A DNA stretch of 5,537 nt from Candidatus Cloacimonadota bacterium (GTDB lineage: Bacteria; Cloacimonadota; Cloacimonadia; Cloacimonadales; Cloacimonadaceae). The position numbers and the translations under genes were made by a program. This document shows positions 1 through 5,537 of this stretch, piece after piece (position 1 is the first letter of the stretch; the number at the start of each line of letters is the position of its first letter). The stretch covers positions 1 through 5,537 of the forward strand of contig JAQUJJ010000191.1 in assembly GCA_028681035.1 (NCBI GenBank), given 5' to 3'. Under the pieces are notes generated by a model. That model worked only from the letters and a program-made list of their open reading frames with translations, made no database searches and was not told the DNA's origin.

Positions 1-1320
1 GACTTGGATTCCTTTATCAATTAGCGTATTGCTCACAATATAACCTCTATGGCAATGAGTAGGGTCCTCTTCGCTACACATCAAAGCCACTTTTTTACCA
101 GACTGTGCCAAGTTGATCAACTCCCGAATTCCTATCAGATACCAGTCCTTTTGTTCTATGTACTCTCGAATGATTTTGCCATCTGAACTGAGGACACTCT
201 TGTCTTCTGGGCGACCTCCCAAAGCAGAACCCATGTATTTATACTTGATGCCGATATCTTTCAGGCTTAACTTCAATTGCTGTTGATTGAATTGAGTAGC
301 GTATTTGCTGCTTGGTACTGAACGAATATCCACGAGGATTTCGATTTTGTTAAGCTCAAGCAATTCCAACAAGTTAGCTATTTCATGATTACTGTGGCCA
401 ATGGTGTATATCTCTGTTTTCCGAGAATCAGATACCTCACCAATGGGATCCGAACGCTGCTCATCTTCGCATTGGGCTACTTTGACCACTGCGATACCGC
501 CAGTAATAGTTGGTTCCTTGTCAAAAACTAGTCTTGCTTTCAGATACTCGTAGCTTCGGATTTGATCTAATACTTGCGTTACTCTAACATTGTGTAGGTG
601 GTGGACTACCGTGCTGGCAGTTGATATCGTAAAAGCCATTAGATACAAATACAGATAATGATAGTTTGGCTCTTCGGCATCAACCGTATTAGTAGACATT
701 ATTAGTGTATTACCACTCTGAATAGCCTCCCTGATGGCTGGCTGACGAATCAACTTCAATAGACCTATTGAACTGATAATGACGACCTTGTTCCATGATT
801 TCGTCCATTCTGCAAGCTGTTTAATATATCTTGAAGAGTCGATCAAGCAGATCAAATTATCGGTTCTTCCTTGAATCTTCGCAGAAGAAAGCTTGGTTAT
901 ATCATTTGCAGATATAATGTATGGGTCTCGACTATCAGACAATAACTCAATGTTTCCAACTGAGCAGAAGTAAGGTGGTGTATTATCTCTCAACAGGATC
1001 TTGAATTTTACAGGATAAAGCTGATCAGTCCTTGTAATTACTCTTATTCCTTGATTGAATATTCGTTCAGTGTAAAGCGAGGCAGTCCCTCCTAGTTCCA
1101 GAAGCTTCGTGATTCTCAGAGCCATATCCTCATCAACAGCAATTGTCTTAGCTATCTCTTCAACATTCATGCCGAAAAGGGCCTGAGGTCCAGGCAATCC
1201 CATTTCTCTGATCTTGTAGGCTATATTTGAATACTCCTGAGCAGCTAGGGGAATCCACTCCGATCTGGAGTGTTTGTAGGTTAAGAGGAATATTACCTGT
1301 GCGTCTTTATCCATAATCAT
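1..1320 (-). CDS. DprA-like / DUF488 fusion protein (3' end outside window)
   Basis: This frame is open for 440 codons from an ATG at 1320 to the window edge, so the C-terminus is missing. Residues about 1-130 resemble the DprA front end: a helical region with an LPGPQALFGM stretch (42-51), then GIRVITRTDQLYP (91-103) and RDNTPPYFCSVGNIELL (111-127), matching the family pattern 'G..vit..D..YP..L....d.PP.l...G'. Residues 130-260 occupy the Rossmann position but lack DprA's SGxARGID-type loop, so this part is degenerate. Residues about 302-440 are a DUF488 domain: YTIGHSN (305-311), VDIRSVPSSKYATQFN (330-345), YKYMGSALGGRPED (360-373) and the signature C415-x7-C423-H424-R425. DprA binds ssDNA and loads RecA; the biochemical role of DUF488 is unknown. 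The ATG at 1320 overlaps the upstream stop as ATGA; an in-frame ATG at 1314 is the alternative. No Shine-Dalgarno site is well placed, which suggests coupling to the helicase gene. DUF488 is the secure call; DprA-like is likely. Confidence 0.8.
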   Translation of the reverse strand, partial: MIMDKDAQVIFLLTYKHSRSEWIPLAAQEYSNIAYKIREMGLPGPQALFGMNVEEIAKTIAVDEDMALRITKLLELGGTASLYTERIFNQGIRVITRTDQLYPVKFKILLRDNTPPYFCSVGNIELLSDSRDPYIISANDITKLSSAKIQGRTDNLICLIDSSRYIKQLAEWTKSWNKVVIISSIGLLKLIRQPAIREAIQSGNTLIMSTNTVDAEEPNYHYLYLYLMAFTISTASTVVHHLHNVRVTQVLDQIRSYEYLKARLVFDKEPTITGGIAVVKVAQCEDEQRSDPIGEVSDSRKTEIYTIGHSNHEIANLLELLELNKIEILVDIRSVPSSKYATQFNQQQLKLSLKDIGIKYKYMGSALGGRPEDKSVLSSDGKIIREYIEQKDWYLIGIRELINLAQSGKKVALMCSEEDPTHCHRGYIVSNTLIDKGIQV

Positions 1321-3425
1321 TTCGTATCTTTTACACTCCCTAACGTGAATGGATATACCTTTCCAACCCCATTGATCCTAAGCATCCTACCCACAATTGT
1401 TAAAGTCCATCTTGAATTGACGAAATCGTCTATTAACAAAACAGGAGACATCCTTACGGATGCCTTTACCGTCCAGTTGTTTATACTGTTTTCTACCTGT
1501 TGTTGGCTGTTTTCATACTTATGAATCGATATTTTCGATGTATTCGAAATTGATATGACATCCAACACCGGGATCCTCAGTTTGGTTGCGAGCCTGTTAG
1601 CAAAATCAACAATGACTCTCGACCGACCGACTGATGGAATAAATGTAATCCATTCAGGAAAAGGATTTGGTGCCCATTGTTTTGTTATCAAATAAACTGC
1701 AGCATTTACTACATCCTCTGTCAAAAGTGCATTGTCTTTAATGCATCTTCTGATTACACTTCCCCAGCCAGCATTCTCCAGATATCCCAATGCTCTGCCT
1801 TGTTCAATAACTTCTTCCTTGGGAATCACAATCGTGGGTTTTTTCTGTAAATTGGTACTTAGTTCCAAGCTGTTTGGCCACCTTTTACGTGGATCAATAA
1901 CTACATAATCCTGATGTAAGAACTCAAGAGCCTTCTGTACTGTTCCCTGTGAAGGATCAGCCGGTAATAAACCATGATTACAATTAACACAAATACCGCA
2001 ATCCTGAGTAGTGTGATCGTCTAATTCATTGGCGATGAATCTCATCAGACAACCTTCATGAGAGATGTAAACTTTCATTCTTTCTCTTTCACGAATGCGG
2101 GTTGATTTTACTTGATCCTTCCTCTGTTGGTCGTAAGTCCATGGCTTCACAGTTCTACTATAATCATAACCGTTTTTTATAAAATAGCCATCAATGAGCA
2201 GATGTTTCAATGCTTTTTCGAGCCGTGAAGATCTCATGTTGAGCTTTCTACAGATTTGTCCCTGTGTTGCCGCGGTTACTGAATTTAGAAAATTCATGAC
2301 TGCTTTCTCCTCTTCTTCAGTAGGAAAGGCTTCTCGCATAAAATAATCCAGTATCTCATCTTCCTCACTTCCATGGAGTAAAATACCATAAGATTCAGGG
2401 ACTTCACGTCCCGCCCTGCCAACTTGCTGGTAGTATGCTATAGCTGATCCTGGAGCTTGATAATGGATAACAAAGTTCAGGTCGGGCTTGTCATATCCCA
2501 TCCCTAGAGCTGACGTTGAGACTAGGACTTTGATCTTATTTTCTAACAGTTTCTGTTCGAGAATTGGACTAAGATCCTGTTTGTTGTCGTCAAGCACATC
2601 CCCACCCCAATAATGATGGCAATTTATGCCACATTGCTTCAACCAGTTTGATACTCTGAAGACGTCCCCCCTTGTCAGGCAGTAAACAACTCCAGAACCT
2701 TTTAGTTTGGGTATTGTATCTGCCAACCATGCAAGTCTCTCTGCAATCGTTGGCAATACAATATTCTGAAGTTTCAAACCAGATCTGCTGAGTTTTCCTC
2801 TCATGACCGAAAATCCTGACCCCAATTGTTCTTCAAGATCTTTAACAACCCTATCATTGGCTGTGGCAGTAGTGCCAATAACTGGAATACCAGTAAATAC
2901 ATTAGAAACTATGCTCTTGATGCGACGATAATCTGGGCGGAAATCATGTCCCCAGTCTGATATGCAATGCACTTCGTCTACTACAAATGCACCTATCCTA
3001 CCCATGGCTGGCACGATCTCGGGTAGGAAGTTCTGGCTGGATAGCCTTTCCGGGGAGATCAACAACAAGTCATACGCGTTTCGCTTGAGCCCATCCTGGA
3101 TCGAGTTCCATTCCTTTGTATTAGATGAATTGATGGTTGTGGCTCGAAGTCCCAATTTGTTGGCATTATAGATTTGGTTACGCATCAAAGCAAGGAGAGG
3201 TGAGATAATTAGCGTGGGACCTTTCCCAAGTTCTCGATTGATCTTGGTCATAATAAAGTAAACAACACTCTTGCCCCAACCTGTCTTTTGTACTATAAGA
3301 AGCCGACCACTTTTAGTCAGGATATGTTCTATAGCCTCAAGCTGTCCAGGACGGAATTCGGCTGAAGCGCCAAACATCTGCTTTATTAGCTGCCTGGCCC
3401 TATCACGAATCTGCTCGGTATTCAT
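1317..3425 (-). CDS. RecQ-like (RqlH-type) DNA helicase with C-terminal PRTase-like domain
   Basis: This is a predicted ATP-dependent 3'-5' DNA helicase. All superfamily 2 RecQ motifs are visible: FRPGQLEAIEHIL (24-36), Walker A QKTGWGKS (46-53), Ia TLIISPLLALMRNQ (71-84), Walker B DEVH (150-153) running into the RecQ aromatic loop CISDWGHDFRPDY (154-166), III TTATA (185-189), V STSALGMGYDKPD (303-315) and VI QQVGRAGR (333-340). DEVH replaces the usual DEAH. A winged-helix-like stretch lies at about 375-420. Cysteines 459, 476, 479 and 482 fit the RecQ zinc site. No HRDC domain is seen. Residues about 530-700 look like a phosphoribosyltransferase fold, with PSVGRSRVIVDFANRLA (597-613) and a PRPP-loop-like VLLIDDFVNSRWTLT (662-676). 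This layout matches the RqlH type of RecQ-like helicases, described in Mycobacterium smegmatis. The start overlaps the brxL-like stop as ATGA with no clear ribosome site of its own. The helicase call is very firm; the PRTase domain's activity is uncertain. Confidence 0.9.
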   Translation of the reverse strand: MNTEQIRDRARQLIKQMFGASAEFRPGQLEAIEHILTKSGRLLIVQKTGWGKSVVYFIMTKINRELGKGPTLIISPLLALMRNQIYNANKLGLRATTINSSNTKEWNSIQDGLKRNAYDLLLISPERLSSQNFLPEIVPAMGRIGAFVVDEVHCISDWGHDFRPDYRRIKSIVSNVFTGIPVIGTTATANDRVVKDLEEQLGSGFSVMRGKLSRSGLKLQNIVLPTIAERLAWLADTIPKLKGSGVVYCLTRGDVFRVSNWLKQCGINCHHYWGGDVLDDNKQDLSPILEQKLLENKIKVLVSTSALGMGYDKPDLNFVIHYQAPGSAIAYYQQVGRAGREVPESYGILLHGSEEDEILDYFMREAFPTEEEEKAVMNFLNSVTAATQGQICRKLNMRSSRLEKALKHLLIDGYFIKNGYDYSRTVKPWTYDQQRKDQVKSTRIRERERMKVYISHEGCLMRFIANELDDHTTQDCGICVNCNHGLLPADPSQGTVQKALEFLHQDYVVIDPRKRWPNSLELSTNLQKKPTIVIPKEEVIEQGRALGYLENAGWGSVIRRCIKDNALLTEDVVNAAVYLITKQWAPNPFPEWITFIPSVGRSRVIVDFANRLATKLRIPVLDVISISNTSKISIHKYENSQQQVENSINNWTVKASVRMSPVLLIDDFVNSRWTLTIVGRMLRINGVGKVYPFTLGSVKDTK

Positions 3426-5479
3426 GATGATGACTTCACATAGGTAACTTCAAATGCACGGCACTTCCGATATCTCTGATTCCTATTCTCTAAGGCAAAG
3501 GCGTCCTTGTTATCAAATGGTTGGAAGATGTCCAGTCCTCTGCCAGGGATGATCTTCCAGCCGTTATCGCTTTGGATGTAGCGGTCATGGATTGTGTCGT
3601 CGATCTCATAGGTGAAGGTAATCCCTGCCAGGTTACAGGAGCTAGCTATCTGTCGGAAATACTCATCCTGATTGGAGTCCTGATACTCACTGTGTTTGGT
3701 GATGAGATGCACTTCCACTTCATCTGCATCGGTTTTGATCGCTGCCACCACTTCCATGAATTCCATCAAATTGCGAGCCTGAAAAAAAGCACTGATAAAG
3801 GGATCTTTGATCTCAATTCGTTTCGAGCCCTTCAGATACTTAGCAAAAAGCCTATGATAGGATATCCCGGTCTGGTTATCCTGGATAGAGATATTCCCCT
3901 GCTTCAATACGGGCGTTTCTGGCGCATCTTTTTGTTGGGGTCGAGTACTTTCACCAGATTCTGGTTCAGACGCCTCTGTGGGCTCATTTTCGTCATCTGG
4001 GGCAGAATCATTCGCATGGTAGTAGCGTGGGTATTGTATCTCCTCAGCGGTCTTAACAAAATGCAGGATTCCGTCATGATCAGTATAAGCAAAACGAACA
4101 GGTTCGTAGGTCTTGTCTATACGCATCAATTGGTCTTTCACACGTTTCCGGTTCTCCATTGCGTACTCGAGCAATTCCTTAATCTCGTCTATTGAAGCTT
4201 TCTGATCCGGATAAATCACCTTCATCAAGCCGGAGAAGGTCTTCTGCACCCCGTCTCTGTCTCTCGTGGAGATATCTGAAACCAGCTCAAAATGCTCCCT
4301 ATACAGGGGGGAGAAATCAGAATTACGAAACGCCCTAAGTATCTCTGCCAGATAATCCACTACAAAGCCATAGCCAGATGAGAACATCTCACCTCTAATT
4401 ATCGGCACTTCCCAGCCCGGCAGATAGCCATGCAGCCTGTCCAAATAGGCGGAATCATAATACTGCTCCGGTAGTTCATCAAACAGATCAGAGTGCTTCA
4501 GCATGTAAGCCACATTATGCTGAGTGTTGCCTACAAAGGTCATAGATGCTTCTGCACCCAGGGTTTCAATACCACGTGAAAATGTCTTGTTTGCCATGTA
4601 GTTCTTCATGATATCTACCAAGGCTTTATCCGCTTTCTTCTTGCGTCCGGCGAATTCATCAAAAGCGACTACATCCCAGAAGCCCACCAGCCCAATCCTG
4701 CCATTGGAGTTGTTCACAAAGAGCTTTGGAACTGATACTTCTCCCCCTGAGATCAAAATACCATGCGGGGAGAATTCAGAATAGATATGCGACTTACCAG
4801 TTCCCTTGGGACCTAGCTCGATCAGGTTGTAATTTCTCTCACAATATGGTACCAGACGTGTAAGCTGCATCAACTTCAACCTTCTACTCATGGTCTCGGG
4901 ATTGAAACCTATGCTTTGGATCAGCAGATCAATCCACTCATCACTCGTGAATTCAGAGCGTTTCTGCAGAAAGCTATCCATATCGAACTTGGACATCTGG
5001 ATCGGCTTAATGGAGTTTAGAAGCCAGGGGCTGCTTTCTTTGTCTTCCGTATAAAGATACTCCACTTCAGCGATGCACCACACACCGCTCACCAGCAGTT
5101 TAGGATGATTCTTAATAATCTCAGTACTAACCACAACTTTAGAGATGCCCATATTGGAGAAGCTTGCCTGATAGCAGTCCTTTTTCTCGTTCAATGTCAC
5201 CGCAATCTTGTCGATCACCTTATTGATTCTGGCTTCTTTAACGTTGGACTTGGTGAGTTCAGCATCCCGCCGGTGAACATAGTGCTTCTCTAGGATGCCT
5301 TTCACCGTATCGATTCCAGCCTGAATCTCTGCCTCATCGGATGTAGCGCAATACTGCCCTAAAAGGTACTCCAGCACATAGGTAGGAACAATAGCATTGC
5401 ATTTAACGGTCTTAACCAGGTCTTTCCGGACTACCAAGCCCTGAAAATGCTCATTGATCTTCTCATCCAATCTATTCAT
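3422..5479 (-). CDS. brxL: BrxL-family AAA+ ATPase with C-terminal MIT_C (PLD-like) domain
   Basis: The first 460 or so residues match BrxL, the AAA+ factor of BREX phage defence that assembles on DNA. A BrxL N-terminal domain covers about 1-170. The ATPase core has Walker A GPKGTGKS (223-230), ISGGEVSVPKLFVNN (243-257), Walker B VVAFDEFAG (270-278, D274/E275), a sensor-1-like FVGNTQ (315-320) and YLDRLHGYLPGWEVP (345-359) with a candidate arginine finger R348. An acidic, Pro/Ser/Glu-rich linker (about 489-525) follows. Residues about 528-682 resemble the MIT_C domain of MITD1, which has a phospholipase-D-like fold: IEIKDPFI (555-562), IHDRYIQSDNGWKI (630-643) and GRGLDIF (646-652). I see no Lon serine-lysine protease motif, so the usual description 'Lon-like' would mislead here. 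The 685-residue length is normal for BrxL despite the domain swap. It is the first gene of the visible operon, with AGGAG seven bases before the ATG. It almost never uses the ATA codon, unlike its two neighbours. BrxL-type ATPase is firm; any role in classical BREX is unproven. Confidence 0.85.
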   Translation of the reverse strand: MNRLDEKINEHFQGLVVRKDLVKTVKCNAIVPTYVLEYLLGQYCATSDEAEIQAGIDTVKGILEKHYVHRRDAELTKSNVKEARINKVIDKIAVTLNEKKDCYQASFSNMGISKVVVSTEIIKNHPKLLVSGVWCIAEVEYLYTEDKESSPWLLNSIKPIQMSKFDMDSFLQKRSEFTSDEWIDLLIQSIGFNPETMSRRLKLMQLTRLVPYCERNYNLIELGPKGTGKSHIYSEFSPHGILISGGEVSVPKLFVNNSNGRIGLVGFWDVVAFDEFAGRKKKADKALVDIMKNYMANKTFSRGIETLGAEASMTFVGNTQHNVAYMLKHSDLFDELPEQYYDSAYLDRLHGYLPGWEVPIIRGEMFSSGYGFVVDYLAEILRAFRNSDFSPLYREHFELVSDISTRDRDGVQKTFSGLMKVIYPDQKASIDEIKELLEYAMENRKRVKDQLMRIDKTYEPVRFAYTDHDGILHFVKTAEEIQYPRYYHANDSAPDDENEPTEASEPESGESTRPQQKDAPETPVLKQGNISIQDNQTGISYHRLFAKYLKGSKRIEIKDPFISAFFQARNLMEFMEVVAAIKTDADEVEVHLITKHSEYQDSNQDEYFRQIASSCNLAGITFTYEIDDTIHDRYIQSDNGWKIIPGRGLDIFQPFDNKDAFALENRNQRYRKCRAFEVTYVKSSS

Positions 5480-5486
5480 CTTTGGT

Positions 5487-5491
5487 CTCCT
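5487..5491 (-). promoter_or_regulatory. Ribosome binding site of the brxL-like gene
   Basis: On the minus strand AGGAG lies seven bases before the ATG at 5479, an ideal Shine-Dalgarno position. It fixes the start of the 685-residue protein. It is the only strong ribosome site among the three genes; the other two starts rely on ATGA overlaps. Confidence 0.85.
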
Positions 5492-5505
5492 GTCACTTAA
5501 AAATC

Positions 5506-5527
5506 CATCTCGAACATCTTCGAGATG
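5506..5527 (-). repeat. Perfect 9-bp inverted repeat / hairpin in the operon leader
   Basis: CATCTCGAA and its exact complement TTCGAGATG flank a four-base spacer. Read on the minus strand, the repeat is followed by GATTTTTAAG, so it could form a small intrinsic terminator that ends transcription from a gene to the right, or an attenuator in the leader of this operon. Only four of nine stem pairs are G-C and the T-run is five bases, so it would be a weak terminator. A dyad this close to the start (27 bases from the ATG) could equally be an operator for a dimeric repressor. The symmetry is certain; the function is not. Confidence 0.6.
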
Positions 5528-5537
5528 CTATAAGTCT

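What the first reader, a model, noticed from the sequence alone, without database searches (positions are those of the whole stretch)
1..5479. Compact three-gene cassette: BrxL-MIT_C, RecQ-PRTase and DprA-DUF488, a candidate defence system
Three nucleic-acid-handling multidomain proteins are joined by two ATGA overlaps with no spacer, so they are very probably made together in fixed proportion. BrxL is an established anti-phage AAA+ factor. RecQ-like helicases and DprA-like proteins act on ssDNA. I do not recognise this exact set as a named system. The sequence shows the operon and domains; a defence role is inference.
Basis: partly seen in the sequence, partly recalled or inferred. Interest (0 to 1): 0.78.

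Follow-up and report, generated by a model that had tools for sequence, protein, structure and literature searches.

The report
BREX tail carrying toxin-antitoxin pair PsyrTA
The three genes are probably the end of a known anti-virus operon (BREX) with a second known defence module, a toxin-antitoxin pair called PsyrTA, fitted behind it; the unusual parts are an antitoxin whose sensing domain has decayed and gained a new domain, and signs that this pair repeatedly settles inside BREX operons.

Summary
In detail: three intact minus-strand genes joined by two possible 4-base ATGA overlaps. The reading as an unnamed three-gene system does not. Gene 1 is BrxL of BREX in a known form with a C-terminal PLD/HKD-type domain; among relatives, pglZ precedes brxL in 18 of 20 fetched regions and 12 of 12 viral-contig loci, and the codons ending 17 bases before brxL in the window resemble a PglZ C-terminus. 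Gene 2 is PsyrT (RqlH), a RecQ helicase with a phosphoribosyltransferase. Gene 3 is a divergent PsyrA (RqlI): it keeps the N-terminal ~128 residues, has a DprA fold without the SLOG motifs, and ends in DUF488. Most likely this is the 3' end of a BREX operon of a Cloacimonadota-like bacterium with a nested PsyrTA module. New here: PsyrTA lies within or behind BREX genes in five further loci, at three positions; and the DUF488-PsyrA form, seen only in a small clade, goes with an Asp-to-Asn/Tyr change in the toxin's PRPP loop. The window's own flanks could not be read; toxicity, defence and any link to BREX failure are inferred.

The parts
5497..5537 (-). Probable 3' end of the upstream gene, read as ...TYSISKMFEMDF-stop; probably the PglZ C-terminus
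   Evidence: Local BLOSUM62 alignment to PglZ C-termini scores 30; 1 of 210 ORF C-termini not labelled PglZ and 5 of 6000 any-frame pre-stop peptides reach it. Two earlier ungapped tests were weak: 9 of 210 and 26 of 210.
5487..5491 (-). AGGAG, likely ribosome-binding site of brxL
   Evidence: Read from the sequence, 7 bases before the ATG at 5479
3422..5479 (-). brxL, BREX BrxL with C-terminal PLD/HKD-type domain (685 aa)
   Evidence: PADLOC BrxL PDLC02508 1085 bits over 1-683; Pfam BrxL_N, BrxL_ATPase, MIT_C; PDB 8emc BrxL E 2.3e-143 over residues 3-479
3434..3868 (-). MIT_C / PLD-like domain of BrxL (residues 538-682), with HDRYIQSD at residues 631-638 (HxR in place of HxK)
   Evidence: PF16565 E 8.5e-43; motif. 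That this is the 'BrxL-HKD (HRD)' form of PMC12839542 section 19 (passages) is my inference; that text does not use the name MIT_C
1317..3425 (-). psyrT (rqlH-like): RecQ helicase with C-terminal phosphoribosyltransferase (702 aa)
   Evidence: PADLOC PsyrT PDLC03928 E 2.2e-242, residues 7-698 against 5-684 of 689
1365..1604 (-). PRTase domain core (residues 608-687) with PRPP loop DDFVNSRWT
   Evidence: PF00156 E 0.006, below its cut-off; residue 670 is N/Y in this clade, D in 93 of 93 more distant homologues
1..1320 (-). psyrA variant (rqlI-like): N-terminal PsyrA domain + degenerate DprA/SLOG fold + DUF488 (440 aa in the window, 3' end cut off)
   Evidence: PADLOC PsyrA E 2.5e-22 over residues 1-129; PDC-M45B E 1.7e-39 over 302-440; AF2 model mean pLDDT 80.4
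937..1320 (-). Conserved PsyrA N-terminal region (residues 1-128)
   Evidence: PsyrA HMM built here matches P0121 (the window's protein) at residues 2-127, hmm 6-133 of 433, i-E 7e-20
457..936 (-). Degenerate SLOG/DprA Rossmann part (about residues 129-288), GSR and GGAxGID motifs absent
   Evidence: Alignment A2 against P0158; no significant HMM match there; DprA/ShosA fold
37..381 (-). DUF488 domain (residues 314-428), with IGHS, DxRSxPxS, LGGRP and CxExxPxxCHR retained
   Evidence: PF04343 E 2.9e-20; invariant and nearly invariant columns of alignment A3

Best explanation
The window is the 3' end of a BREX operon (pglZ-brxL, type-1-like) of a Cloacimonadota-like bacterium, with a PsyrTA/RqlHI toxin-antitoxin module nested behind brxL and probably translated with it through the ATGA overlap. 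BrxL (AAA+ motor plus PLD-type domain) works in BREX restriction. PsyrT is the toxin: its phosphoribosyltransferase domain, attached to the RecQ motor, damages DNA or nucleotide metabolism. The third protein is its antitoxin and holds PsyrT with the conserved N-terminal ~128 residues. In most PsyrA proteins the SLOG/DprA domain keeps its motifs; here that domain is degenerate and a DUF488 domain is added, so DUF488 probably took over sensing or gating. Infection, or failure of BREX, would free the toxin and abort the infection. Shown: gene identities, layout, loss and gain of domains, PsyrTA within or behind BREX genes elsewhere. Inferred: the rest of the BREX operon in this genome, toxicity, antitoxin action, trigger, the role of DUF488.
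For: PsyrT model E 2.2e-242 over nearly the full length. Gene 3 matches PsyrA over residues 1-129 (2-127) and folds like ShosA/DprA. For RqlHI in E. coli the PRTase is the toxic part, the proteins interact, and constructs that lack the first 84 or 129 residues of RqlI (as well as the HTH, which alone is dispensable) do not protect (PMC4670107: abstract, passages, sections 12 and 15); the window keeps that N-terminal region. BrxL relatives: PglZ before BrxL in 18 of 20 fetched regions, 16 of them within 31 bases, 2 with a gap of about 450, and in 12 of 12 viral loci, with PglX in 11 and BrxC in 8; PglZ-like tail in the window. Nearest named BrxL proteins are 'BREX system Lon protease-like protein BrxL' of Candidatus Cloacimonadota/Syntrophosphaera/Cloacimonas at 87-88%. 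PsyrTA within or behind BREX genes, same strand, in L027, L042, L058, L069 (4 of 84 loci with a PsyrT hit) and L166 (1 of 40 sampled). A DprA + PRTase pair without helicase protects E. coli from T7 and lambda (PMC9122126, passage).
Against: The window's own flanks could not be read (no genome held; metagenome scans capped at 0), so pglZ and the rest of BREX rest on a 12-residue tail and on relatives. Two of three scoring schemes for that tail were weak. In the 20 fetched BrxL regions brxC homologues were found in only 5 and brxA/brxB in 4 within the stretch taken; L069, the best match to the window's layout, shows pglZ and brxL but no brxA, brxB or brxC homologue. PsyrTA next to BREX is rare: 5 loci out of 84 + 40 (with overlaps), 0 of 26 in the Chloroflexota sample, and 0 of 12 viral BrxL loci carry PsyrT. 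The PRPP-loop change might mean altered or lost toxicity. I found no experiment on this clade.
Confidence: 0.68

Rival explanations
1. A self-contained three-gene defence system in which BrxL, the RecQ-PRTase and the DprA-DUF488 protein form one machine independent of BREX.
For: The ATGA overlaps imply coordinated translation; L069 has the same order BrxL-PsyrT-PsyrA and no brxA/B/C homologue was found there. BrxL P0166 and gene-3 relative P0129 share a longest-contig length of 23652.
Against: L069 carries pglZ right before brxL. The other BrxL relatives fetched are behind pglZ and without PsyrT. RqlHI acts as a pair in E. coli MG1655 (PMC4670107), and PsyrT lies without detected BREX genes in 80 of 84 and 39 of 40 loci, although flanks are often short.
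Confidence: 0.12
2. PsyrT and the DUF488 protein of this clade are no longer a toxin-antitoxin pair but have been converted into BREX accessory factors: a helicase/PRTase and a DUF488 enzyme that process or mark DNA together with BrxL.
For: Clade-wide change of the third Asp of the PRPP loop (N in 11 and Y in 1 of 12 with a residue there; D in 93 of 93 distant homologues); loss of SLOG motifs; DUF488 retains its invariant residues, hence may be active; coupling to brxL.
Against: The DD pair (D666, D667) and helicase motifs are kept, and so is the PsyrA N-terminus; without toxicity this region would be free to decay.
Confidence: 0.2
3. Chance neighbours in a defence island: PsyrTA landed behind brxL and the overlaps only reflect compact gene packing.
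For: BREX loci here also hold other cargo (GmrSD, Fic, Mokosh, Ppl); BREX-linked PsyrTA is a small minority of PsyrT loci. No enrichment over other defence genes was computed.
Against: Five other loci from at least three phyla have PsyrTA on the same strand within or right behind BREX genes, often with small gaps or overlaps.
Confidence: 0.15

Closest known systems
PsyrTA / RqlHI toxin-antitoxin and anti-phage system
   Same: RecQ helicase fused to a PRTase, followed by a DprA-like antitoxin gene; near full-length PsyrT match; PsyrA N-terminus kept (PMC4670107).
   Different: Antitoxin lacks the GSR and GGAxGID SLOG motifs and ends in DUF488; PRPP loop DDxxN instead of DDxxD; placed behind brxL.
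Type-1 BREX, BrxL with C-terminal HKD-type nuclease
   Same: BrxL_N, AAA+ and a C-terminal PLD-type domain with HxR; nearest named relatives are BREX BrxL. PMC12839542 (passages): 1030 instances among 2913 type-1 BREX taxa with BrxL.
   Different: Only brxL (and probably the last codons of pglZ) is inside the window; a PsyrTA pair follows.
Auxiliary and backup effectors in BREX loci (PMC12839542, section 35 part 1 read)
   Same: Extra effectors placed within or beside BREX core genes, including PARIS-like modules proposed to counter BREX inhibitors.
   Different: That section covers nucleases; RecQ, DprA, DUF488 and Psyr have 0 occurrences in the paper's main text. Its supplements were not seen.
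ShosTA
   Same: DprA-like antitoxin with a PRTase toxin (PMC9122126 and PMC12593503, passages); ShosA (8zva) is among the closest solved folds to residues 1-275 of gene 3.
   Different: ShosT lacks a RecQ helicase (recalled). The solved ShosA chain is 308 residues; whether it has any C-terminal extension was not checked.

Membership tests
PsyrTA / RqlHI | Toxin: RecQ-family helicase with Zn site and C-terminal PRTase | tested here: met
   PDLC03928 E 2.2e-242; motifs conserved
PsyrTA / RqlHI | Antitoxin gene directly downstream, same strand | tested here: met
   Starts at 1320 (4-base overlap) or 1314 (2-base gap); PsyrA N-terminal match
PsyrTA / RqlHI | Antitoxin with DprA/SLOG domain carrying the GSR and GGAxGID motifs | tested here: not met
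   No Pfam DprA hit; HMM match stops at residue 127; motifs absent; the fold is kept. Hence filed as a variant of the pair. By crude patterns the motifs are also incomplete in some other PsyrA: both found in 52 of 63 loci, neither in 2
PsyrTA / RqlHI | Toxin damages the cell; antitoxin relieves it | not testable with these tools
   Needs expression experiments
Type-1 BREX | BrxL with N-terminal part and AAA+ core | tested here: met
Type-1 BREX | pglZ directly upstream of brxL | tested here: inconclusive
   12-residue tail resembles PglZ ends, weakly; relatives have it
Type-1 BREX | brxA, brxB, brxC, pglX present in the locus | not testable with these tools
   Outside the window; no genome held
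BrxL-HKD form | C-terminal PLD/HKD domain with H-x-[K/R]-x4-D | tested here: met
   PF16565; HDRYIQSD at residue 631
ShosTA | Stand-alone PRTase toxin without helicase | tested here: not met
   Toxin carries a RecQ helicase; the defining feature itself is recalled

The most novel reading that the evidence does not exclude
PsyrTA nested in BREX is a guard of BREX. Its translation is tied to BrxL, and in this clade the antitoxin swapped its SLOG sensor for a DUF488 domain that reads BREX status or a phage product, so that a phage which disables BREX sets off the PRTase toxin; the Asp-to-Asn change in the PRPP loop then reflects a retuned toxin matched to the new antitoxin.
Probability: 0.2. Interest if true: 0.75.

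Novelty: new variant of a known kind. Interest (0 to 1): 0.45.

Why it matters
It turns an apparently new cassette into two known systems in one operon and adds two testable points. First, a PRTase toxin-antitoxin pair is found in BREX operons of unrelated bacteria, which fits the idea of backup effectors that punish phages for switching BREX off. Second, there is a natural antitoxin in which the conserved N-terminal part is kept while the DprA/SLOG part decayed and a DUF488 domain was added, so what holds the toxin and what senses infection could be separated experimentally.

Tried and rejected
PglZ tail: ungapped 12-mer comparison and a PSSM gave weak support (9 of 210 and 26 of 210 ORF C-termini as good or better; 2.9% and 7.7% of any-frame peptides); a local alignment, tried third, gave 1 of 210 and 5 of 6000. 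I use it as moderate, not decisive, support, since it was chosen after seeing the first two. The 210 include mechanical ORFs that may not be genes.

Viral contigs: 5 loci for PsyrT, two DUF488 loci without PsyrT or BREX hits. Plasmids: 180 records with PsyrT hits, all below 60% identity; 20 records where BrxL matches over at least 80% of the query; neither was followed into gene neighbourhoods. The 9 loci that alone brought in (L121-L129) were not annotated one by one; two of those places were refetched as L131 and L146.

Literature searches (listings only unless said otherwise): 'PsyrTA' 13 papers; 'BrxL + RecQ + DprA' 1; 'DUF488 + SLOG' 1; 'BrxL + MIT_C' 4; 'PsyrTA + BREX + embedded' 1; BREX embedding terms 1, PMC12839542; 'RqlH + RqlI' 10; 'DUF488 + defense' 8, none on a DUF488 defence system by title; 'ShosTA + phosphoribosyl' 68, mostly author-name matches; 'ShosT + ShosA' 1. 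On this basis I found no report of PsyrTA nested in BREX or of PsyrA-DUF488; papers outside this open library, supplements, and most of the listed papers' texts were not examined. Sberro 2013 and Pu 2025 are known here only through the papers that cite them. SLOG as a ligand-binding domain is recalled.

Counting caveats: the two PsyrT sets overlap (L005/L178 are the same contig; L007/L179 probably), L058 is also G002 and was left out of the 40; many loci have short flanks (26 of the 40 have 5 kb on both sides), so BREX links are lower bounds. BREX genes were detected with type-1-like queries at E 1e-8. Some viral BrxL loci look alike (L152 and L161 give the same coordinates and identities), so 12 is not 12 independent cases. 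The crude GSR pattern also hit P0127 and P0129 at residue 271 (IGSK, in the linker); I count those as absent.
Full report
What is there. The window holds three minus-strand genes with two possible 4-base ATGA overlaps: brxL 3422-5479, a RecQ-PRTase gene 1317-3425, and a third gene 1-1320 that runs off the window. Full-length relatives of the third protein are 461-478 aa, so some 25 codons are missing here; 10 of 13 aligned relatives start at the second Met, which would turn the second overlap into a 2-base gap. No stop or frameshift interrupts any of the three. brxL has its own AGGAG site.

Gene 1. Pfam finds BrxL_N, BrxL_ATPase and MIT_C. PADLOC's BrxL model covers the whole protein including MIT_C (1085 bits), so the 'BrxL-MIT_C fusion' is an ordinary BrxL form. 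PMC12839542 (abstract, passages and section 35 part 1 seen) describes BrxL with a C-terminal HKD-type nuclease, with HRD in place of HKD, as 1030 instances among 2913 type-1 BREX taxa that have BrxL. The window has HDRYIQSD at residue 631 in a PLD-like domain; equating the two is my inference. This suggests the source lineage.

Neighbourhood of gene 1 elsewhere. BrxL hits occur in 26 of 296 genomes of the phylum set of G008 (Cyclobacteriaceae, Bacteroidota) and 9 of 247 of the phylum set of G001 (Spirochaetaceae). I fetched 20 neighbourhoods. PglZ precedes BrxL in 18 of 20, within 31 bases in 16 and with a gap of about 450 bases in 2; of the other two, one is cut at a contig end (L146) and one is a different MIT_C protein (L149). 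brxC homologues were found in 5 of 20 and brxA and brxB homologues in 4 of 20 in the stretches taken; a PglX-like cluster is present in 17. In viral contigs 12 of 12 BrxL loci have PglZ upstream, 11 PglX and 8 BrxC; none has PsyrT in the sequence held. The window shows 58 bases upstream of brxL. One frame ends TYSISKMFEMDF-stop, 17 bases before the brxL start. A local alignment to PglZ C-termini scores 30, reached by 1 of 210 ORF C-termini and 5 of 6000 any-frame peptides; two ungapped tests before it were weak. I therefore read the upstream gene as pglZ with moderate confidence.

A matching change in the toxin. The PRPP loop of PsyrT reads DDxxDS in nearly all homologues. In the 13 closest proteins the third Asp is N in 11, Y in 1 and a gap in 1. 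In the next 14 it is D in 11, N in 2 and S in 1 (this last one misaligned). In the remaining 93 it is D in 93. The DD pair is kept. By position in a Vibrio homologue (DD at 662-663), the D663 whose mutation removed RqlH toxicity is probably the second of that pair, which the window retains; this mapping is inferred.

PsyrTA inside BREX. Among the 85 loci give a PsyrT hit and four have BREX genes around it. L027 Clostridium nigeriense: brxC-pglX-SHOCT-GmrSD-psyrT-psyrA-Fic-pglZ-(opposite ORF)-brxL. L042 Zoogloea: brxC-ORF-pglX-Ppl-psyrT-psyrA-mkoA-mkoB-pglZ. L058 Accumulibacter: brxC-ORF-pglX-(short opposite ORF)-psyrT-psyrA-pglZ-brxL. L069 Spirochaetaceae: pglZ-brxL-psyrT-psyrA, with no brxA, brxB or brxC homologue seen nearby. 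In a sample of genomes, PsyrT was found in 15 of 398 of the Accumulibacter phylum set and 26 of 301 of the Chloroflexota set. Of the 40 neighbourhoods taken (14 + 26, leaving out G002 = L058), one, L166, is a BREX operon: brxA-brxB-brxC-ORF-psyrT-psyrA-pglX-GmrSD-pglZ, all on one strand. PsyrTA thus sits between brxC and pglX, between pglX and pglZ, or behind brxL. Three different positions suggest repeated, independent nesting; this was not tested with a tree. The rate is low (5 of 84 + 40, with overlaps between the sets), and BREX operons clearly take other cargo too.

How it most likely works. BrxL acts in BREX. PsyrT is held by the N-terminal part of the antitoxin. In ordinary PsyrA the SLOG domain could sense a nucleotide-type ligand or ssDNA (recalled/inferred). 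Here that part has decayed and DUF488 has been added, so DUF488 is the best candidate for the sensing or gating step. Release of PsyrT would poison nucleotide metabolism or DNA and stop the infection. A guard role for BREX is attractive, since PARIS-like modules in BREX loci are proposed to answer phage inhibitors of BREX (PMC12839542 section 35), but nothing here tests it.

Verdict. The finding is real but is not a new kind of system: it is a BREX tail plus a PsyrTA variant. What deserves a second look is the nesting of PsyrTA in BREX operons and the DUF488 antitoxin with its paired toxin change.

Noticed in passing
L042:3-22075: Zoogloea BREX operon that carries three further defence modules in a row between pglX and pglZ: Ppl, PsyrTA and Mokosh (MkoA, MkoB), all on one strand with small gaps or overlaps.
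   Followed up: partly
   Followed up: partly
L027:6870-14310: In Clostridium nigeriense a GmrSD type IV enzyme, PsyrTA and a Fic protein lie together between pglX and pglZ.
   Followed up: partly
L150-L161: Twelve IMG/VR 'viral' contigs carry BrxL-MIT_C with PglZ upstream and often PglX and BrxC, i.e. large parts of BREX operons on contigs classed as viral.
   Followed up: no
L061:12001-12840 and L077:6034-6882: Two Planctomycetaceae PsyrT neighbours give only weak PsyrA matches (about 100 bits, open frames of 280 and 283 aa) and also lack both SLOG motif patterns, perhaps a separate loss.
   Followed up: no
window 1312-1320: The third gene has two possible starts, ATGATTATG; 10 of 13 aligned relatives begin at the second Met (alignment A2), in which case there is a 2-base gap after psyrT instead of an overlap.
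   Followed up: no
L130:1658-9566: Upstream of pglZ-brxL-psyrT-psyrA in the Spirochaetaceae locus lie a PglX-like cluster member, a 1031-aa ORF and several ORFs without Pfam hits (two tested) instead of brxA-brxB-brxC; the type of this BREX-like locus is unclear.
   Followed up: no
window 3521-4195, + strand: A 224-codon open frame lies antisense to brxL; it starts with TTG and was not studied, probably chance.
   Followed up: no
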